A DNA stretch of 35,427 bases from Acidobacteriota bacterium (lineage in GTDB: Bacteria > Acidobacteriota > Blastocatellia > Pyrinomonadales > Pyrinomonadaceae): positions 1 through 35,427 of the forward strand of contig JAHBSH010000018.1 of assembly GCA_019639215.1 (NCBI GenBank), given 5' to 3'. Each line of letters starts with the position of its first letter. Positions within the stretch are counted from its first letter, which is position 1. The notes under the pieces are model-generated. The model ran no database searches and was not told where the DNA came from. It worked only from the letters and a program-made list of their open reading frames with translations. The translations under genes and the position numbers were made by a program. This document shows, piece by piece, positions 19,420-31,985 of the stretch.

Positions 19420-20604
19420 TTAATTTTCCGGTGATGGACTTGGGCTAGGGCTTGGCTCAGGTTCCTGATCACGGCGTCTGAGCGTCGGTGGTTTGGAACT
19501 TGATTCGCCATCCGTATTTCCGACATTCGGATCGCCCGGATCTTCGGGTTGCCTGCGCTTAAGTGTCGGTCTGCCCGGGTCGCCATCATTGGAATCACTA
19601 ATTATGCCGGCTTTGGCATTTGTCGTTCTCAGAAGATGACTCTTTACCCGGTTAAATTCAGATGAGCTGATCACATATTCTTCTTTTTCAGGGAAGCGGG
19701 CTACAAGTGAGATGCTCGCGTCACGACGATCTATTGATTGTGGATGGGTTGAAAAGATCTTTGCCCAAGTGCCCGGCTTTTTCTTGTTCTTTTCATTAAG
19801 CTTTTCAAACATCGTTGCCATGCCGTTAGGGTCATAACCGGCGGCGTAAAGATACTGTACGCCTAGCGTGTCTGCCTCAGTTTCAGCATTACGGCTAAAT
19901 TTGAGGAAGCTGAGAAGCTGGCCAAAACCACCCGCGTTCTGGGCAATTGCACTCGCAACGCCACCGCCGAATATAATCGTGGCGATAAGTCCGTAGTTGA
20001 TAGCCTGAAGTTTGCCTTGATTTTCCATTGCGTGCCGAGCAGCGACATGAGCTATTTCATGTGCCATCACGCCTGCAAGCTCTGATTCATTGTCAGCGGC
20101 GAGAATAAGCCCTTTATTGACAAAGAAATAACCTCCGGGCAGGGCAAAGGCGTTTACTTCATCACTGTCGATAACCTTTATGGTAAATGGGATCTTAGCG
20201 TCTGAATGGAGAACAAGATTCTGTCCTACCCGATTTACATATTCTGTGACGAGCGGGTCTTCGACCATTTTGGTAGATTGCTCCACCTCCATCGCGAGTT
20301 GCCGACCTAGGGCTAACTCTTTGCTCTGCGAACCGCCCAGCCAACCAAAGAGTTTATCTGTTCCTTTATTGATCTTGCGTTTGCCGATCATCGCCGGATT
20401 TTCTTTATCGGAAAGCGGTTTTAGCCTATCCTGAACGTCAGAGAGTTGACTGGTTTTCTTGGTATCGTCATCCTCTTTTTTGGCTGTAGCTGTTTGAGCA
20501 GGAGCCTGTGCAGAAACACTCATTAGCGGCAATGCAAAGCTTGTTGACGTGACGACCGCAGCCATGAAACTGGTCAATATTTGCTTGGAAAACTTATCTT
20601 TCAC
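19420..20604 (-). CDS. Secreted M48-family metalloprotease (BepA/YggG-like)
   Basis: The product has 394 residues. The GTG start is fixed by a strong GGGGAGGT five bases upstream. Residues 1-33 form a signal peptide ending in SVSAQ. The protease domain (about 95-310) has the zinc motif HEIAH (182-186) and the downstream ligand in AETEADTLG (probably Glu241), with NAFALPGGYFFVNKG before it as in BepA. These enzymes degrade misassembled outer-membrane proteins. No C-terminal TPR domain follows, unlike E. coli BepA. Instead there is a low-complexity tail with repeated RPTLKRRQ/PPTLRRRD-like segments and a final Pro-Ser repeat. The convergent TPR gene might supply such a scaffold, but this is only a suggestion from position. 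Confidence 0.9.
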   Translation of the reverse strand: MKDKFSKQILTSFMAAVVTSTSFALPLMSVSAQAPAQTATAKKEDDDTKKTSQLSDVQDRLKPLSDKENPAMIGKRKINKGTDKLFGWLGGSQSKELALGRQLAMEVEQSTKMVEDPLVTEYVNRVGQNLVLHSDAKIPFTIKVIDSDEVNAFALPGGYFFVNKGLILAADNESELAGVMAHEIAHVAARHAMENQGKLQAINYGLIATIIFGGGVASAIAQNAGGFGQLLSFLKFSRNAETEADTLGVQYLYAAGYDPNGMATMFEKLNEKNKKKPGTWAKIFSTHPQSIDRRDASISLVARFPEKEEYVISSSEFNRVKSHLLRTTNAKAGIISDSNDGDPGRPTLKRRQPEDPGDPNVGNTDGESSSKPPTLRRRDQEPEPSPSPSPSPEN

Positions 20605-20960
20605 GATCTACCTCCCCGATCGGTCTTTCTGTTGAAATAAATATTAGAACCTTTCCGATATTGATTCAATGTTTTTTGATGCAGTAATTCAAAAAAAAGT
20701 TGGTTTTATCGGATGATCGCAGCAATTATTTGTTGCTTTCATATGACCATTATTTATTTAGATGCAAATATCATTAGAATCGTCTAACAAAATTGATTAA
20801 CAATGTTTACAGAAAGTTCTTTTGAAATTGTCGGAAAACTGGTATGATTGTTTATATGACAGCTCTCACCGGCTGTTATTTGGTTGTTCATTCCGAATAA
20901 TTTATCTTGAAGTTTGTTTTCGTCGTCCTCACGAGGGGCCTTTCTCGGGTCCGATAACAC
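20605..20960. other. AT-rich intergenic region upstream of the large ATPase gene
   Basis: These 356 bases lie between the divergent M48 protease gene and the 1184-residue ATPase gene. I see no convincing gene, repeat or tRNA. The left third carries the M48 ribosome binding site (reverse strand), and the middle is strongly AT-rich. A promoter candidate sits at 20822-20848, leaving an unusually long leader of about 105 bases before the ATPase ATG, with GC-rich hairpin potential near 20930. Confidence 0.6.
20822..20848 (+). promoter_or_regulatory. Extended -10 promoter candidate for the large ATPase gene
   Basis: TGGTATGAT (20840-20848) is an extended -10 element. TTGAAA (20822-20827) lies 15 bases upstream of TATGAT as a -35-like hexamer. 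The implied leader is about 105 bases. Confidence 0.4.
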
Positions 20961-23900
20961 ATGAAAAAAATTCAGGAAAAAGTAAAGGATATTGTTGATG
21001 TCCGCCCCTATCGGGGACTTAGGGATTTTGCTGCTGACGCACGGCAAACCCTTGAACACTATTGCTTTACAGACGATACCTCGGCATTGATGGCAAAGTG
21101 GGTGAACGCTGCTGCGACCGTCTCACCGCAGAACGGGATCGCCTTGGCCTTGGCAGGGTATCGCGGGGTCGGCAAAAGCCATTTCCTTGCAGCGTTTGGC
21201 ACCATTTTGGCTCTTTCAGAGTTACGGTCAAAAGTTGGCGACGGACATGTAGCCGCAGCTGCTCAGGGTCTTTTGCGCCGTCATTATCCTTTGGTCAGCG
21301 TTCGTCGAGGCTCCCAGGAATCGCTTGTTGACGAAATAAAAGAAGCAATTAGGAACAGATTTGGTCCTGAGGTTCAGTTCAACGCAGATACACCAGCGGC
21401 GATACTCACCGAAGGCATAAAGCGGGCCGGCGATCTACCGCTCGTGGTAATAATCGATACGGCATTTGAACGCGGAAACCGTGTGGCCCGCAACGATGGG
21501 GCGATCTTAGGTGAGGCCGCCGAATTCGCACAAAGCAATAATATGCTGCTTTGTGTAGCTCTTGACGACGACATAGCAGGGGCGGACGGTTCTAACGCAG
21601 CGATCGTTAGGACGTTCAAGATCGATTACCTTGACCAGGAACATCTTTACAAGGTGGTCAATTCGCACATTTTCCCGAAAAATGGCCAGAAGCAGCCGAT
21701 CATAGAGGATATCTATCAGTTCTTTTGCTCAGTAGTTCCTAATTTTAGATGGAGCTCCCAGAGGTTTGTATCACTATATCCTTTGCATCCAGGTATTCTT
21801 GAAATTTCGCCTTATGTTCGTCTTTATGTTCATGATTTTGCTCTCCTGAGTTTTGCAGCTGAGGCTGGTGAGCGAATACTGGGCAGACCAGCCAATTCAC
21901 TGATCGCTTTTGACGAGGTATTCGATAAGGCAGAACCTTACTTAAGGAAGATCGAAGACCTGGCTGATGCATTTCAGGCATATGACAAACTTAACACTGA
22001 AGTTGTCAGCAAAATACCAGTAATTCAAAGACTTCAGGCAAAGCTGATCCTGAAAGCGTTGCTTTTGCTGTCGCTTAACGGACGAGGCGCTACCGCTGAG
22101 GATATTTGCTCGGCGATGTTGATATTCGACGAAGCCGAACCCGTAAATGCAGTTAATAACGTCAGAAGTATAATTGAATTGTTTTCACAGGCACTTCCGG
22201 AAGATATCACCACAATTCGCGAAGAATCATCCGGAGACACCTTGTTCAGCTTTAGGGTGCAGGCGAAGGAAAATATCAACAGCGCTTTGCAGGAAGCCGT
22301 TGCCGAGATGGACCGGAAAGATGTTCCATCAATAATAAGAGGCTTGCTGCAGGAACGTTACCCGGATTTCTCAATTCCGGTTAGGTTGGACGGTTCCGCA
22401 CGCCCGTCTATGGATTCGATAGCAGTTTGGCGAGGCGGCCAGCGAAGAGGACGCATCTATTGGCGCGAAGGGGATGGCTCTGATACGACTGCGAGAGAAC
22501 GGTCAGATGACGTCCTTGATTGGGAAGTAACAATTGATCTTGGATCAAGCCCTGCTGAAGGCTCTGTCGGACACTCTAGTTCCGGCGTAGTGTGGAAACC
22601 CGACTCACTTAAGAATGAAGAAATTGACACGTTGCTGAAGCACCATCTTCTGAAGACCGAAAACAATGTGGTTGATAGGTTTGGAGAACACGTAAGGGCT
22701 TCGATACACTCTCATAGAGTTGCCGCCGAGCGTATTGTCGATCGGATAATGCTGCAGAACGGCAATCTCCGCATAGACGGTTTCGATTATAATTTTACGG
22801 AAGAAGCTCTTTCAGCCGACACGATCTCGGGCCTTATTTCCTCGATGCTTGAACCGTTGTTTGAGACGCGGTTTCCGCTTCATCCACACTTCGGTGAAAA
22901 GCTTGGCATGGCTGAGGTGTCGAAGATCGTTTCTGAGCTTTATGCTGGTTCACGCCAAAATCTTGAAGAAGTTCAGCATCTTGCCCGAACATTCTCTCTA
23001 CCGTTAGGGCTTGTCCGTTACGAGGAAGGAAAATATCTTCCGGAAACGGCCGAGAATCTTGAAAAGCTTCCAAGCGCAGTAGAGATACTCAAATCTGTAA
23101 ATGAAGATGAGAACGGAACCGTCAGCCTTCAGTCTATCTATTTAAAGCTTCGCCAACCGCCATACGGACTTGTTCGCGAAGCCCAGCATCTGATCTTTGC
23201 CGCACTTGTCGCCGAACGAAAGATAGAGTTTCTTACATCCAAAGGCGACCGAATTAGCTCCCGTTCGTTAGACCTGAAGATCATCTGGGATGATATCGTA
23301 GGTGTCGCAAAGCCGTTAGACTCAAGCGTTTCGGGTAAGCGACTGATTACATGGGCGCAAAAGATCACCGGCGATCAGGCTATCTCTTCTGTTGAAAAGA
23401 ATGAAGACGTTGCAAAGATCACGGAAAGTCTTTTGACATGGTTATCCGAATGGGACAACTCCGGTCTGCTGAACAGAATGGAACGAACCCCGGACGACCA
23501 AATGAACACGCTGATTTGGACTGAGGCAGCCCGTCTTCGCAAAACCTTTGGTATTGTTGCGGATGAGATCAGGAATTTCATCAATGGAAATTCTTACGTT
23601 GAAACTGTTCTTAGCCGTATCTCTGACGTATTTCACGACAGTGAGGATGAGTATGATCGTTCATTAAATGCAATGGCAGATCTTACGTGCTTTCTTGCCG
23701 CAGTCAAACTTCGAATAGAGATCGTATCTTATGTCGCTGCCTGTGAACCGACCGGTGATTCGAAATTGGAAGATATAAGACAGGCATTGCTGGCGTCCCT
23801 TGATAGTGCAGTAACAAAGCCTAGTGAAACGCGAAACAGAGAAGCGGGCTATTTGTGGGAGCAATTTCGCCGCGGATATGTTGAGGTCTTTGCAACCCAG

Positions 23901-24515
23901 CATGATCAGATCATGAGATCTCATGATCTACAGGAAAAGTTTGATGAGATACTAAGGACAGATATCTGGTGGGAATTCGAAAGATTATCAGACATCTCCA
24001 CGCTTCGGGGTCCTGAATGGGCTTCAGTCAAAGCGATAATGAATCGTTTCCGGCAGCTTGATTGCAAGTTTGATGTGCGAGCTGCACTTTTACAGCGTCC
24101 GTCGTGCATCTGCGGATTCTACATGAGGGAAGCAAATTCATGGCAACAACTCCCTGATCTTTTGTGGTCTGAGATAACGAAAGGCCAGGCAGCTATACGA
24201 TCCAGATTAAGGGAAATGGCACCTGAGTTATCGTCACGAATGGACGAACTTTCGAGGAGTTCGAATGATAGTATTTCGCAGGCTTGTCGCGAGATGGCAG
24301 CCATTTTACGTTCGAACAAAGATCTTCCAAGGCTTTCAGATATTCACCTTATTGCCCTGAGAAGAGCTTTCACTCGGAAAATTATCGAAGCACCATTGCC
24401 AGACGAAGATACTCACCATGATGTAAGCGGATTTGACCAAAAAGTCAGAGAAGCTCTCAGCGGACCTATCGGCAGGCCGATCGACTCTGAAGAAGCAATG
24501 CTCATAGAAATGTGA
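20961..24515 (+). CDS. Large P-loop ATPase of unknown function (BrxC/PglY/DUF6079-like, orphan)
   Basis: The product has 1184 residues. A Walker A motif GYRGVGKS (66-73) is followed by HFLAAF, like the GKSH/GKTH loops of the large BrxC, PglY and DUF6079 ATPases. The Walker B strand LPLVVIID (159-166) ends in Asp166, but the next residue is Thr instead of the usual Glu; the nearest acidic residue is Glu170. A sensor-like strand MLLCVALDDD follows (about 195-204), then YPLHPGI (about 270), a segment that resembles the HP-containing stretch in that ATPase group. Residues 350-1180 are mainly helical with no recognised nuclease, helicase or protease domain. A CICGF motif with Cys1049 and Cys1051 lies near the end. 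No methylase, PglZ, Lon-like or other defence gene is nearby, and base composition matches the neighbours. Family relation is moderate; function unknown. Confidence 0.85.
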   Translation: MKKIQEKVKDIVDVRPYRGLRDFAADARQTLEHYCFTDDTSALMAKWVNAAATVSPQNGIALALAGYRGVGKSHFLAAFGTILALSELRSKVGDGHVAAAAQGLLRRHYPLVSVRRGSQESLVDEIKEAIRNRFGPEVQFNADTPAAILTEGIKRAGDLPLVVIIDTAFERGNRVARNDGAILGEAAEFAQSNNMLLCVALDDDIAGADGSNAAIVRTFKIDYLDQEHLYKVVNSHIFPKNGQKQPIIEDIYQFFCSVVPNFRWSSQRFVSLYPLHPGILEISPYVRLYVHDFALLSFAAEAGERILGRPANSLIAFDEVFDKAEPYLRKIEDLADAFQAYDKLNTEVVSKIPVIQRLQAKLILKALLLLSLNGRGATAEDICSAMLIFDEAEPVNAVNNVRSIIELFSQALPEDITTIREESSGDTLFSFRVQAKENINSALQEAVAEMDRKDVPSIIRGLLQERYPDFSIPVRLDGSARPSMDSIAVWRGGQRRGRIYWREGDGSDTTARERSDDVLDWEVTIDLGSSPAEGSVGHSSSGVVWKPDSLKNEEIDTLLKHHLLKTENNVVDRFGEHVRASIHSHRVAAERIVDRIMLQNGNLRIDGFDYNFTEEALSADTISGLISSMLEPLFETRFPLHPHFGEKLGMAEVSKIVSELYAGSRQNLEEVQHLARTFSLPLGLVRYEEGKYLPETAENLEKLPSAVEILKSVNEDENGTVSLQSIYLKLRQPPYGLVREAQHLIFAALVAERKIEFLTSKGDRISSRSLDLKIIWDDIVGVAKPLDSSVSGKRLITWAQKITGDQAISSVEKNEDVAKITESLLTWLSEWDNSGLLNRMERTPDDQMNTLIWTEAARLRKTFGIVADEIRNFINGNSYVETVLSRISDVFHDSEDEYDRSLNAMADLTCFLAAVKLRIEIVSYVAACEPTGDSKLEDIRQALLASLDSAVTKPSETRNREAGYLWEQFRRGYVEVFATQHDQIMRSHDLQEKFDEILRTDIWWEFERLSDISTLRGPEWASVKAIMNRFRQLDCKFDVRAALLQRPSCICGFYMREANSWQQLPDLLWSEITKGQAAIRSRLREMAPELSSRMDELSRSSNDSISQACREMAAILRSNKDLPRLSDIHLIALRRAFTRKIIEAPLPDEDTHHDVSGFDQKVREALSGPIGRPIDSEEAMLIEM

Positions 24516-24575
24516 TCTCAACGTTTCCATCATTCCACTTTTCATCTTTAGCCATACAAATTGTATTGTAGTTCA

Positions 24576-25463
24576 ATGCAGCGTGTTACTGTTGTTGGAC
24601 TTGGCCGTGTTGGCGGAGCGTTGACCTTGGCTCTTGACCGGAAAGGTTATCAGATAACCAATGTTGTGGTGCGCGATAAGCGGGCTGGCATTGAAACATT
24701 GGAAAAATTCCAACTGCGTTCAAAACCTGCCATCTATTCATGGCCGATAAGGGAAATTACCGATACCGATATTCTGCTGATAACTGTCCGCGATCCTGAG
24801 ATACAGGATGTTGCGGAAAAGCTTGCTGCACACGTGTCTAATGTAAAAGTCTCTCTTCACACCAGCGGATCACGTTCTTCCAAGGAAATAGAAGCCCTAT
24901 TAGCGACGGGCTCGGCGATAGGCTCAATGCATCCTTTGGTTTCGGTCAGCGATCCAATTGCCGGTTCTAATTCTTTTCAAGGGGCGTATTTTTGTGTCGA
25001 GGGCGACGAACCAGCAATATCAACCGCCTCTGACATTGTCAGCGCACTGGAGGCACATTCTTTTACTCTCGACACCGGCCTCAAGCCGCTCTATCATGCA
25101 TCAGCGGTCATGTCCGCTGGACACATCGTGGCTCTTTTCGATATGGCGATCGAGGCATTGTCCAGATGCGGCGTGGAAAATGCCCAAGAAATACTTCGTC
25201 CTCTACTGGCAAGCACTACTTCAAATCTGCAAGAACAATCCACCGGTCAGGCCCTGACAGGCAGCTTTGCACGTCGAGATCATGAAACCGTTAAAGCACA
25301 CATTAAAGCGTTAAAGGCCAATCTTCCAGCTGAAGTCCTGGCAGCTTATCTGTTGCTGGGAGAGAGGTCACTGAAGATCACTTCTAAGTCCGCGGCTAAC
25401 GCATCCGCTAGTGACCATGAACTCCGGAATGTGATAAACATAGCGAAAGAAAATTTAGAATGA
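24576..25463 (+). CDS. Rossmann-fold DUF2520 protein (NADP-dependent reductase-like)
   Basis: The product has 295 residues from the ATG at 24576; a TTG at 24561 is possible. The N-terminus VTVVGLGRVGGAL (residues 4-16) is a dinucleotide-binding GxGxxG loop. The first domain resembles the F420/NADP oxidoreductase Rossmann domain, with DTDILLITVRDPEI. The motif SMHPLVSVSDP and the helical C-terminal half (about 155-290: ASAVMSAGHIVALFDMAIEAL) match the DUF2520 pair that mimics ketopantoate or prephenate-type dehydrogenases. The substrate is unknown. It begins 60 bases after the ATPase gene and ends 15 bases before the Fur-type gene. Confidence 0.85.
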   Translation: MQRVTVVGLGRVGGALTLALDRKGYQITNVVVRDKRAGIETLEKFQLRSKPAIYSWPIREITDTDILLITVRDPEIQDVAEKLAAHVSNVKVSLHTSGSRSSKEIEALLATGSAIGSMHPLVSVSDPIAGSNSFQGAYFCVEGDEPAISTASDIVSALEAHSFTLDTGLKPLYHASAVMSAGHIVALFDMAIEALSRCGVENAQEILRPLLASTTSNLQEQSTGQALTGSFARRDHETVKAHIKALKANLPAEVLAAYLLLGERSLKITSKSAANASASDHELRNVINIAKENLE

Positions 25464-29060: not shown

Positions 29061-30797
29061 ATGCTGAACAGTAAAATACGACCCGGTCTCGCTTTTTTCT
29101 TTCTGTTTCTACTCGTTTTCGTAGGGCTTCCAAAAGATCTTTCGGTTGCCGCAGCAACGCGAGAGCCTGTACGCGGAAAACATGCGATGGTTGCGTCTCA
29201 ACACGAACTGGCCTCACGTATCGGTGTCGAGATCATGAAAAAGGGCGGTAATGCAGTAGATGCGGCTATCGCCGTAGGCATTGCGTTGGCGGTCGTTTAT
29301 CCCGAAGCCGGCAACATCGGCGGCGGCGGATTTATGATCATCCATTCGCCGGGCAAAGAGCCTAAAGCGATCGATTACCGCGAGATGGCTCCGAAAGCCG
29401 CACATCGTGATCTTTATCTTGATAAAGATGGCGAGCTGATCAGAGGCGAAGGCGGTTCAACTATAGGTTATCGGGCATCAGGTGTCCCCGGAACGCTTGC
29501 GGGTTTCGATCTGGCATTCAAAAAATACGGTTCAGGCAAAGTTAAATGGGCCGATCTGATAGAACCTGCTCAGCGGCTCGCGGTTGAGGGATTTGTACTT
29601 TCTCACAGACTGGCTGAGCTTGCCATCGCATATCGCGAACATCTTGCCAAATATCCTGATAGCAACCGCATTTTCCTTAATGACGGGAAATATTACAGAG
29701 AAGGGGCACTTTTCAAACAAGCTGAGTTGGGAGAAACGCTTGGCCGTATAGCAAAAGAAGGGGCGGAGGAGTTCTATACCGGCAAGACCGCCAGAATGAT
29801 AGCCGATGACATGAAGGCAAACAACGGCCTTATCACGCTAGAAGACTTGAAGAATTATGTCGCAAAGGAGCGTGAACCTATCAGAGGCAATTATCGCGGC
29901 CACGAGATCATATCAATGTCGCCGCCAAGCTCAGGCGGACTTGTGTTGATGCAGGTGCTGAAGATGCTTGAACCGTATGACCTCAAGTCTCTAGGTAACA
30001 ATTCGGCGGCGAAATATCATTTGTACATCGAAGCTTCGAGACGAGCATTTGCTGACAGGGCTGAGTATATGGGCGATGCTGATTTTGCCGATGTTCCGAT
30101 AAAAGGACTGCTTGACAATGATTATATTGCATCGCGAAGGGCAACAATAGATCTGAAGAAGGCCACACCGAGCGCTGAGATCCGTTTTGGACAACCGCCG
30201 GGTTCCGAGAGTAACGATACGACGCATTACACAGTGGTAGATCCGTCCGGGATGGTTGTATCAAACACCTACACGATCAATGATCTTTATGGTTCGCGCG
30301 TTACCATAAAGGGAACTGGAATTCTGATGAATGATGAGATGGACGATTTTGCGGCGAGGCCGGGAATGCCGAATATGTACGGACTCATCCAGGGGGAACG
30401 CAACAAGATCGAAGGCGGTAAACGGCCACTGTCGGCAATGACGCCGACCATTGTCCTGAGAAAGGATGGAACTGTTTGGTTCGCTGTTGGAGCCAGAGGC
30501 GGCCCGCGTATCATATCGGCAGTATTGCAAACTGTGATAAACGTTATCGATCATGATATGAATATCCAACAGGCCATAGATTCGCCAAGGGTACATCATC
30601 AGTGGATGCCGGACACTATCGGTTTTGAACGGTATGGACTTTCTCCAGACACGATCAACATACTGACAGGCATGGGACATAAATTTGCTGGAAGTCCCGG
30701 AAATATTGCGTCGGCAACGGGAATAATGATCGCAGAGGACGGAACACGCCTTGGGGCCATAGACGGACGCAGCGACGGAGAAGCGATAGGTTACTGA
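29061..30797 (+). CDS. ggt: Gamma-glutamyltranspeptidase / glutathione hydrolase
   Basis: The product has 578 residues, the usual length, with a signal peptide (about 1-32) for periplasmic export. It cleaves the gamma-glutamyl bond of glutathione and related peptides. The proenzyme self-cleaves before Thr387 in SNDTTHYTVVD to give the two subunits, as in E. coli. Arg107 in DYREMAP, which binds the glutamyl carboxylate, is present, as are GNIGGGGF near residue 85, NDEMDDF and the SAMTPTIV loop with the substrate-contacting serine. No glutathione synthesis gene is in the window. The stop overlaps the end of the convergent zinc-ribbon gene by seven bases. Confidence 0.96.
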   Translation: MLNSKIRPGLAFFFLFLLVFVGLPKDLSVAAATREPVRGKHAMVASQHELASRIGVEIMKKGGNAVDAAIAVGIALAVVYPEAGNIGGGGFMIIHSPGKEPKAIDYREMAPKAAHRDLYLDKDGELIRGEGGSTIGYRASGVPGTLAGFDLAFKKYGSGKVKWADLIEPAQRLAVEGFVLSHRLAELAIAYREHLAKYPDSNRIFLNDGKYYREGALFKQAELGETLGRIAKEGAEEFYTGKTARMIADDMKANNGLITLEDLKNYVAKEREPIRGNYRGHEIISMSPPSSGGLVLMQVLKMLEPYDLKSLGNNSAAKYHLYIEASRRAFADRAEYMGDADFADVPIKGLLDNDYIASRRATIDLKKATPSAEIRFGQPPGSESNDTTHYTVVDPSGMVVSNTYTINDLYGSRVTIKGTGILMNDEMDDFAARPGMPNMYGLIQGERNKIEGGKRPLSAMTPTIVLRKDGTVWFAVGARGGPRIISAVLQTVINVIDHDMNIQQAIDSPRVHHQWMPDTIGFERYGLSPDTINILTGMGHKFAGSPGNIASATGIMIAEDGTRLGAIDGRSDGEAIGY

Positions 30798-31342
30798 TCG
30801 GTATCTTTTCTTTCAAAAAGCCTGGTGGTGTTTTCAATAACGCTGCCGGGTCTTTTTTCTATTGTGACGTCTTCGCGCCACTGTCCGACTGACGGCGGAT
30901 CATAGCTCTGGACAGGTGTTGTTAAAAATCCTGCTTTTATCGAGTTGGCATCAAATGACGATTGGATCGCATCAGTATGAGATGTTGAGGACCCTTGTTC
31001 AATTATCTCTGCGGATTCAAACATCAAAGCGTAGGCGGCTCTTAGCACCGAACCCATAAAAAAAGTTATCGCCAGGAGGACAACGAGAAAAGGTCCGGCA
31101 TTTAGACCTACCGATATTATAGTGACTAGAGGAACAACAAGAAATCCGATCAAAAAGAAGAAGAGGCCATGCTTCAAACCTCTTTTTCTCGGAGAGGTGC
31201 CGGTTCTTTCGGCCAGATGAGGGGTAATGCCTCGATTATCAACCAACTGAGCTACGCCGGTCATTAAAAAACCACAGCGCGAGCAGTATCTTGTTTCGTC
31301 ACTTATTTGCTGTTGACCGCATTTTGGACAATAGATGGGCAT
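30791..31342 (-). CDS. Zinc-ribbon membrane protein (paralogue B)
   Basis: The product has 183 residues. Residues 5-24 form a zinc ribbon (CPKC, then CSRC). A disordered linker is followed by two membrane spans (about 50-72 and 76-98), then a soluble part ending in GSVIENTTRLFER. This tail motif is shared with the paralogue 2 bases upstream and, in a shifted frame, with the gene at 2023. The two minus-strand genes form an operon in which this is second. The last seven bases overlap the convergent ggt gene. The general design, a cytoplasmic zinc finger tethered to the membrane with a conserved C-terminal peptide, suggests a signalling or scaffold role, which is inference. Confidence 0.82.
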   Translation of the reverse strand: MPIYCPKCGQQQISDETRYCSRCGFLMTGVAQLVDNRGITPHLAERTGTSPRKRGLKHGLFFFLIGFLVVPLVTIISVGLNAGPFLVVLLAITFFMGSVLRAAYALMFESAEIIEQGSSTSHTDAIQSSFDANSIKAGFLTTPVQSYDPPSVGQWREDVTIEKRPGSVIENTTRLFERKDTDQ

Positions 31343-31344
31343 GG

Positions 31345-31899
31345 TTATTTCTCTTTCTGCTGTCTGATCAGAAGCTTTGTAGTGTTTTCGGTAACGCTTC
31401 CAGGAACTCTTAGTTTTCCGGTATCGCGACCTTCTGCATTGGGACCAGCAGGTTGAATATAGTCTGTCGCAGTCGAATGAAGGTCATCATAAAGAGCCCT
31501 CGGAGCAACGGGTTCATTGATCAATGTGGGTTTGTTCTTAAGCTCGTCTAGAAATGCTCTGCCCGTCGGTGGACGCTTTGGTAGAAATAATGACACGAAA
31601 AGCAACATCACTCCTCCCGAAAAGCCAAAGACAGCTCCAAATGCCGCAAGATCGTCTATACCCATTGCACCTGAAAGAGGAACTACAAGAAGAAGCCAAA
31701 ACATGAACCAAAGCACACTGAACAATATGCCGTTCTTTCTGTAAAGCCATGACGGTAGCTTAGAATCTGTGTCAGAGCCTGATATCGGTGATCCATCATT
31801 AGAGAGTACGAGTGCTATTTGATCAAGCCGCAAACCGCATCTGTTGCAAAAGGTTGTTTCTCTGGTAAATTGTTCCTGACCACATCTTGGACAATACAT
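31345..31899 (-). CDS. Zinc-ribbon membrane protein (paralogue A)
   Basis: The product has 184 residues from the ATG at 31899, which gives the family start MYCPRCG and has AAGGA about ten bases upstream; an ATG at 31920 would add seven residues but lacks a ribosome binding site. Residues 2-22 form a zinc ribbon (CPRC, then CNRC). Two hydrophobic spans follow (about 56-78 and 83-105), then a soluble tail ending in GSVTENTTKLLIR. It is the first gene of a two-gene operon with its close paralogue, 2 bases apart, which points to a local duplication. The function of the family is not known to me. Confidence 0.82.
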   Translation of the reverse strand: MYCPRCGQEQFTRETTFCNRCGLRLDQIALVLSNDGSPISGSDTDSKLPSWLYRKNGILFSVLWFMFWLLLVVPLSGAMGIDDLAAFGAVFGFSGGVMLLFVSLFLPKRPPTGRAFLDELKNKPTLINEPVAPRALYDDLHSTATDYIQPAGPNAEGRDTGKLRVPGSVTENTTKLLIRQQKEK

Positions 31900-31985
31900 A
31901 ACTGAGTTTTCCTTGCTCATCGGCTGGATAAACGAATTTTTACACGAAAAGGTTCAATCGTAAAGCGTTAAATATGCCTGTTATG

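What the first reader, a model, noticed from the sequence alone, without database searches (positions are those of the whole stretch)
20961..24515. Orphan 1184-residue BrxC/PglY-like ATPase with Glu-less Walker B
The GYRGVGKS-HF loop and the overall plan recall the large ATPases of BREX and related phage-defence systems. No partner gene is present, the Walker B acid pair reads Asp-Thr (Asp166-Thr167), and 800 C-terminal residues match nothing I know apart from a late CICGF motif. Its long leader, extended -10 promoter and native base composition argue for a resident, regulated gene. It could be a single-gene defence factor or a chromosomal ATPase of a new type. This is the best candidate in the window for an undescribed system.
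Basis: partly seen in the sequence, partly recalled or inferred. Interest (0 to 1): 0.72.

Follow-up and report, generated by a model that had tools for sequence, protein, structure and literature searches.

The report
BREX-type ATPase living without BREX
The gene encodes a full-length relative of BrxC, the core ATPase of the BREX phage-defence system, but in these Acidobacteria it has no BREX partners, is inherited like an ordinary chromosomal gene, and has lost the residues that normally hydrolyse ATP, so it is probably an ATP-bound, DNA-associated scaffold with a non-BREX job.

Summary
The ORF is real (20961-24515, 1184 aa) and the motif reading is right. It is not an ATPase of a new type: Pfam puts it in DUF6079, the BrxC/PglY family; profile comparison with BREX BrxC aligns 1104 columns (E 2.6e-29); the AlphaFold model best matches solved BrxC. 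The 'unmatched' C-terminal residues are the normal BrxC tail, CICGF included. Yet it is not BREX: no pglZ in 30 of 32 genomes, no other BREX gene nearby, no plasmid, phage or viral copies. It is single-copy in 33 of 36 congeners, sits in a conserved locus (M48 protease / ATPase / DUF2520), follows species phylogeny, and is under strong purifying selection (dN/dS about 0.03). In 42 orphan relatives Walker A and the Walker B Asp are kept; the Walker B Glu (1 of 42) and arginine-finger Arg (0 of 42) are lost; BREX BrxC keeps both (7 of 7). A C-terminal module with an invariant His-Cys-Cys-Cys set occurs alone, without ATPase, beside PBP1B genes elsewhere in the phylum. Best reading: an ancient host-domesticated BrxC that binds but barely hydrolyses ATP, a DNA-associated scaffold. 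The cellular role is open; a fixed single-gene defence role is not excluded.

The parts
20961..24515 (+). Orphan BrxC/PglY-family (DUF6079) protein, 1184 aa
   Evidence: ORF; Pfam DUF6079 7.7e-16 above gathering score; PADLOC BrxC-PglY 2.9e-15; hhalign to BREX BrxC alignment E 2.6e-29 over 1104 columns
21156..21182 (+). Walker A, GYRGVGKSH (residues 66-74), invariant Lys72
   Evidence: K72 in 42 of 42 orphan relatives and 7 of 7 BREX BrxC
21441..21461 (+). Walker B (residues 161-167): Asp166 kept, Glu replaced by Thr167
   Evidence: D166 42/42; residue 167 is T or S in 24/24 of the family, E in 1 of 18 other orphans, E in 7/7 BREX BrxC
21600..21614 (+). Equivalent of the BrxC arginine-finger segment (residues 214-218)
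   Evidence: Position 218 is Arg in 7/7 BREX BrxC and never Arg in 42 orphans; fingers K326/R330 defined in PMC13326643; mapping by alignment
22077..22256 (+). First winged helix-turn-helix (residues 373-432)
   Evidence: AF2 model; VIA match to the BrxC N-terminal construct spans 7-433
22401..22880 (+). alpha+beta domain (residues 481-640), fast-evolving
   Evidence: AF2 strands 483-546 followed by helices; 34% mean identity within the family; order as in BrxC (PMC12839542)
22881..23330 (+). Second winged-helix region (residues 641-790)
   Evidence: C-terminal model matches winged-helix domains, best Z 8.3 over 63 residues
23331..24380 (+). C-terminal helical coiled-coil module (residues 791-1140), occurs alone in other Acidobacteriota
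   Evidence: Stand-alone 366-587 aa proteins L114-L117 match profile 790-1157, E down to 1e-48
23901..24119 (+). Candidate metal site: His981, Cys1035, Cys1049, Cys1051 (CICGF)
   Evidence: All four invariant in the 32-row C-terminal alignment including stand-alone forms; present in 6-7 of 7 BREX BrxC
20840..20848 (+). Extended -10 promoter element TGGTATGAT
   Evidence: TGNTANNNT within 45-217 nt upstream in all 24 loci checked
24561..25463 (+). DUF2520/Rossmann-like protein, conserved downstream neighbour on the same strand
   Evidence: Pfam DUF2520 2.6e-30; directly downstream in 35 loci across three families, overlapping the ATPase stop in several
19420..20604 (-). M48 metalloprotease (BepA-like), conserved divergent neighbour
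   Evidence: Pfam Peptidase_M48 8.7e-32; found in 36 loci, and beside DUF2520 when the ATPase is absent

Best explanation
An ancient, chromosomally fixed, BREX-independent member of the BrxC/PglY (DUF6079) family. Shown: full BrxC architecture, vertical inheritance in Acidobacteriota, absence of BREX partners, retention of the ATP-binding residues and loss of the catalytic Glu and of the arginine-finger Arg. Inferred: the protein binds ATP and Mg but hydrolyses it poorly, so ATP acts as a structural switch that locks N-terminal dimers or rings; the C-terminal coiled coil, pinned by a His-Cys3 metal site, gives constitutive dimerisation; the winged helices and alpha+beta domain hold DNA. It therefore works as a stable DNA-associated scaffold serving a host function (chromosome organisation or gene regulation, perhaps coupled to its envelope and redox neighbours), not as a BREX restriction factor. 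The exact cellular role is not resolved.
For: Family: Pfam DUF6079 7.7e-16, BrxC profiles over N- and C-terminal parts, hhalign 1104 columns E 2.6e-29, Foldseek/VIA top hits BrxC 9zll and 9zdx, Z 18.7 over 397 residues against 13.4 for the next row, domain order as described for BrxC. Not BREX: PglZ absent from 30/32 genomes; neighbours are housekeeping and PADLOC hits among them are generic ABC or sigma-54 domains; no plasmid, phage or viral hit. Vertical: 33/36 congeners, 66/101 good genomes of the class, synteny, distances correlate with rpoB, r 0.79 overall and 0.61 within genus, 0 of 5000 permutations as high, gene tree groups by taxonomic family. Constraint: dN/dS 0.029, like Fur and BamD-type neighbours. 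Catalysis: residue table. In BREX BrxC, E269Q cuts ATPase and stabilises ATP-dependent dimers (PMC13326643), a laboratory analogue of the natural Thr here.
Against: No biochemistry. f3, f24 and f40 relatives carry Asp, and one Chloracidobacterium-like copy carries Glu, at the Glu position, so some members may hydrolyse; the conserved Asp202/Asp204 could supply an acid. Arg217, one residue off the finger column, is present in 15/24 of the family. Real absences of the gene (g41, g40, g47, part of g23) with neighbours intact show it is dispensable, as an accessory or defence gene would be. rpoB and gene trees share only 9 of 22 splits (random mean 0.19). dS is near saturation. AF2 pTM is 0.49, so inter-domain geometry is uncertain.
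Confidence: 0.55

Rival explanations
1. Single-gene phage defence: the orphan BrxC senses phage DNA and blocks replication by itself or with a generic host enzyme, and happens to be fixed at one chromosomal site.
For: Characterised relatives (BREX, SspC, DUF499 systems) are defence proteins; the gene is cleanly missing in several lineages with flanks intact, so it is dispensable; the alpha+beta domain is variable.
Against: One conserved locus throughout the family and no defence neighbours; no mobile copies; dN/dS 0.029; congruence with rpoB. BREX restriction generally needs its other proteins (PMC13326643 abstract), absent here.
Confidence: 0.2
2. Active AAA+ motor with a relocated catalytic acid (for example Asp202 or Asp204 of the conserved LDDDIAGAD loop) and a shifted finger (Arg217): hydrolysis is retained and the motif is only rewritten.
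For: D202 and D204 are 24/24 in the family while D202 is Gln in BREX BrxC; Arg217 in 15/24; strong constraint on the AAA+ core, 54% mean identity.
Against: D202 lies at the end of the strand after Walker B (sensor-1 place), not in the Walker B turn; Arg217 is not conserved; D202 is kept in only 8 of 18 other orphans.
Confidence: 0.25
3. Envelope-linked or redox-linked complex: the protein works with proteins encoded beside it (M48 protease, PBP1B, LptE) or with the DUF2520 dehydrogenase-like protein as a pair.
For: DUF2520 adjacent in 35 loci over three families with overlapping stops and starts; PBP1B adjacent in two other families and LptE in a Chloracidobacterium-like genome; a C-terminal-only version persists beside PBP1B.
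Against: The neighbour differs from family to family; DUF2520 and M48 persist in genomes without the ATPase, and family f3 has the ATPase without DUF2520.
Confidence: 0.2
4. Decaying BREX remnant, or a BREX component acting in trans with a remote BREX locus.
For: Missing catalytic Glu and missing partners.
Against: Strong purifying selection and intact ORFs in about 100 genomes; PglZ absent from 30/32 genomes; deep split from BREX BrxC on the tree.
Confidence: 0.03

Closest known systems
BrxC/PglY of BREX (Pfam DUF6079; BrxC from BREX-like loci L118-L125 of other Acidobacteriota; solved Acinetobacter BrxC 9zll, 9zdx)
   Same: Full-length homology, ORC/Cdc6-type AAA+, wHTH, alpha+beta, wHTH, coiled coil, His-Cys3 tail motif, Walker A, Walker B Asp
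   Different: No PglZ, PglX or other brx genes; fixed chromosomal locus; no Walker B Glu; no Arg in the BrxC finger column; far below the NCBIfam BREX_BrxC cut-off (25.8 vs 400 bits)
DUF499 ATPases of BREX-related (BR) systems (PMC12839542)
   Same: Similar AAA+ / wHTH / alpha+beta / wHTH plan
   Different: DUF499 proteins end in RRM-like domains and travel with an MTase and a helicase; this one ends in a coiled coil and has neither
SspC of phosphorothioate-based Ssp defence
   Same: Weak profile similarity in the second wHTH region (1.2e-4)
   Different: No ssp or dnd genes nearby; BrxC profiles score better
Archaeal Orc1/Cdc6 initiators
   Same: Same AAA+ clade and winged helix; VIA Z 13.4, rmsd 4.6, 258 residues (2qby)
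   Different: Much shorter proteins without the BrxC-type tail; similarity is at clade level

Membership tests
DUF6079 / BrxC-PglY protein family | Score above Pfam gathering cut-off and full-length co-linear homology | tested here: met
   57.2 bits vs cut-off 23; hhalign 1104 columns, prob 99.8, E 2.6e-29
DUF6079 / BrxC-PglY protein family | Domain order AAA+, wHTH, alpha+beta, wHTH, coiled coil | tested here: met
   AF2 models compared with PMC12839542; VIA Z 18.7 to BrxC for residues 7-433
BREX system | pglZ present, normally next to brxC | tested here: not met
   PF08665 absent from the own genome and over cut-off in only 2 of 32 genomes, at other loci
BREX system | pglX methyltransferase and other brx genes in the neighbourhood | tested here: not met
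   None among the window genes scanned or among the families reported for 88 neighbours in 19 loci (Pfam table shows the 25 commonest)
BREX system | NCBIfam BREX_BrxC equivalog cut-off (400 bits) | tested here: not met
   25.8 bits; none of 17 genomes over cut-off
BREX BrxC enzyme | Walker A Lys and Walker B Asp | tested here: met
   K72 and D166 in 42/42 orphans
BREX BrxC enzyme | Catalytic Walker B Glu (E269 in Acinetobacter BrxC) | tested here: not met
   T or S in 24/24 of the family, E in 7/7 BREX BrxC
BREX BrxC enzyme | Arginine finger (R330 in Acinetobacter BrxC) | tested here: not met
   Position 218 Arg 7/7 in BREX, 0/42 in orphans; alignment-based, Arg217 could substitute in 15/24
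BREX BrxC enzyme | ATP-dependent dimerisation and DNA binding | not testable with these tools
   Needs purified protein
DUF499 BREX-related ATPase | DUF499 profile hit and C-terminal RRM-like domain | tested here: not met
   No DUF499 hit at E<=1; C-terminus modelled as helical coiled coil
Ssp defence (SspC) | Best profile match is SspC, with ssp genes nearby | tested here: not met
   BrxC profiles score better; no ssp genes among neighbours
Stand-alone phage-defence gene | Enrichment next to defence genes or on mobile elements | tested here: not met
Stand-alone phage-defence gene | Protection from phage | not tested
   Needs plaque assays

The most novel reading that the evidence does not exclude
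A BREX core ATPase was domesticated long ago in Acidobacteriota into a vertically inherited, ATP-locked chromosomal DNA scaffold, whose C-terminal metal-bound coiled-coil module then became an independent protein linked to peptidoglycan synthesis (PBP1B); BrxC-type proteins thus have a host function outside defence, or BREX itself recruited a host protein of this kind.
Probability: 0.3. Interest if true: 0.75.

Novelty: new variant of a known kind. Interest (0 to 1): 0.52.

Why it matters
BrxC is the centre of BREX, whose mechanism is unsettled. A natural clade that lives without any BREX partner and has shed the hydrolysis residues but kept ATP binding, winged helices and the His-Cys3 tail separates the scaffold function of BrxC from its restriction function. 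It also warns against calling BREX or defence from a BrxC/PglY hit alone (PADLOC gives one here), and offers a test of whether defence ATPases can be domesticated, or were host proteins first.

Tried and rejected
phmmer of the single sequence against the PDB found nothing useful; the profile reached BrxC only at E 0.028-0.05, so structure comparison was needed. The C-terminal model (640-1184) gave no Foldseek match at E<=0.001 and VIA rows mainly for its winged helix, best Z 8.3 over 63 residues; no claim of a new fold is made. Rfam: nothing in the window. The first Mantel test was spoiled by a broken rpoB fragment (G100) and was repeated without it. PADLOC neighbour hits mad3/mad8 looked like MADS genes; the one member checked singly matches over a short stretch together with other generic ATPase models, and I read it as an ABC-type ATPase. 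The PglZ hit in G099 is at a different locus from the orphan. Absence of the gene in three congeners (G002, G016, G029) is not counted as loss because the DUF2520 neighbour is missing too, which suggests assembly gaps. Literature searches for an orphan or stand-alone BrxC, and for DUF2520, found nothing in the open-licence PMC library; subscription papers and preprints were not searchable.

Full report
Observation. The 1184-codon ORF at 20961-24515 (+) is intact. Composition is native (GC 0.477 vs 0.465). The extended -10 TGGTATGAT at 20840-20848 is supported by comparison: TGNTANNNT lies upstream in all 24 relatives checked, commonly as AAAA(C)TGNTAAAAT. The -35 candidate is poorly spaced (15) and the generic scan does not list it.

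Family. Pfam assigns DUF6079 (7.7e-16, 57.2 bits, cut-off 23). PADLOC BrxC-PglY profiles match residues 63-390 and 608-953, others up to 1056, and 29 of 30 aligned relatives match. DUF6079 is the Pfam family that BrxC hits first (PMC12839542). A profile of 30 relatives (A1) against seven BrxC proteins from loci of other Acidobacteriota that I read as type-3 BREX (A3; reading from memory of gene order in L118: a small BrxF-like gene upstream, AlbA-like and MTase-like genes downstream; DUF6079 1672 bits for the L118 protein) aligns 1104 columns at E 2.6e-29. So the C-terminal 800 residues are homologous to BrxC.

Structure. The AF2 model (pLDDT 83.6, pTM 0.49) shows AAA+, winged helix, alpha+beta, winged helix and a long helical tail, the order described for BrxC (PMC12839542 section 16). 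Best structural matches are the Acinetobacter BrxC N-terminal structures 9zll and 9zdx (Z 18.7 and 18.4, rmsd 5.1 and 5.8, about 397 residues; next, Orc/Cdc6 at 13.4). The separate C-terminal model (pLDDT 87) matches mainly winged-helix domains over about 65-78 residues.

Distribution and descent. One copy per genome in the family of the window (records name Acidobacteria, several Pyrinomonadaceae): 33 of 36 congeners, 66 of 101 good genomes of the class; relatives also elsewhere in the phylum. The locus is syntenic: M48 protease divergent on one side, DUF2520 downstream. The gene tree groups sequences by taxonomic family, separates them by a long branch from BREX BrxC and shows an old duplication giving ~1010-aa paralogues in families f3 and f5. 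Patristic distances correlate with rpoB (r 0.79 all, 0.61 within genus; 0 of 5000 permutations; 9 of 22 splits shared vs 0.19 at random). dN/dS to the 89%-identical relative is 0.029, close to Fur, BamD-like and GGT neighbours and below DUF2520 (0.135); dS exceeds 1, so this is approximate. Clean absences with M48 and DUF2520 left adjacent occur in other genera, so the gene can be lost.

Not BREX. PglZ, one of the two proteins conserved across BREX subtypes, is absent from the own genome and from 30 of 32 sampled genomes over cut-off. Neighbours in 19 varied loci are housekeeping in kind; PADLOC matches among them are few and look generic (ABC-type and sigma-54-activator ATPase domains). No plasmid, phage or viral-contig copy was found. 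The NCBIfam BREX_BrxC cut-off is missed by far (25.8 vs 400 bits).

Catalytic residues. In 42 orphan sequences K72 and D166 are invariant. Residue 167 (BREX: Glu 7/7) is Thr/Ser in 24/24 of this family and Gly, Asp, Asn or Ser in the others, Glu once. Residue 218, aligned with arginine finger R330 of Acinetobacter BrxC, is Arg in 7/7 BREX and 0/42 orphans; K326 aligns with A214. In Acinetobacter BrxC, E269Q lowers ATPase and stabilises ATP-dependent dimers, and DNA promotes larger assemblies (PMC13326643). By analogy (inference) the orphan is an ATP-bound scaffold. The sensor-2 equivalent could not be fixed with confidence.

C-terminal module. His981, Cys1035, Cys1049 and Cys1051 are invariant in 32 aligned tails and present in BREX BrxC, so CICGF is part of a candidate metal site (inference), not a peculiarity. 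In family f34, four loci encode only this module (366-587 aa; profile 790-1157), and where the neighbour was scanned it is a PBP1B gene (L115, and the 1040-aa form in L113); the full-length gene in f24 also adjoins PBP1B. A Chloracidobacterium-like genome (my inference from its two-contig 3.7-Mb form) has LptE just downstream.

Mechanism. Shown: family, architecture, descent, missing partners, residue pattern. Inferred: ATP binding with weak hydrolysis, dimer or ring formation, DNA binding, host role. The weakest step is the host role: neighbours point to envelope and redox genes but differ between families, and the gene is dispensable in some genera. A fixed single-gene defence role keeps about 0.2.

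Limits. MAG-based genomes without names; profile search outside Acidobacteriota was not possible; open-licence papers only; no experiment.

Noticed in passing
window 20677-20702 (-), and about 45 related loci: Bipartite motif CAAC-N16-GCATCA upstream of the M48 protease gene, conserved with the same spacing in relatives and kept where the ATPase is absent (L138-L140, L145); looks like an ECF-sigma type promoter. Only two exact CAACYTT-N13-GCATCA sites in the whole genome.
   Followed up: partly
L114:7246-8535, L115:8281-10044, L116:8678-9778, L117:8441-9610: Stand-alone C-terminal BrxC module without ATPase, downstream of a PBP1B (transglycosylase/transpeptidase) gene where scanned (L115), with the His-Cys3 set invariant.
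   Followed up: partly
L074, L079, L080, L082, L084: A second, shorter orphan BrxC-like paralogue (1008-1043 aa) in two other families of the class, from an old duplication.
   Followed up: partly
L085:8898-15059; L121:125-5434: Very long versions of the protein (2053 and 1769 aa) with unexamined extensions.
   Followed up: no
window 30791-31920 (-): Two tandem paralogous zinc-ribbon membrane-like proteins (183 and 191 aa), only about 41% identical to the nearest relative's copies while most flanking genes are 70-99% identical: a fast-evolving pair.
   Followed up: no
window 24561-25463 and 121 of 162 genomes: The DUF2520/Rossmann-like gene is nearly universal in the family, has no paper in the library searched, and evolves faster than the ATPase (dN/dS 0.135).
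   Followed up: partly
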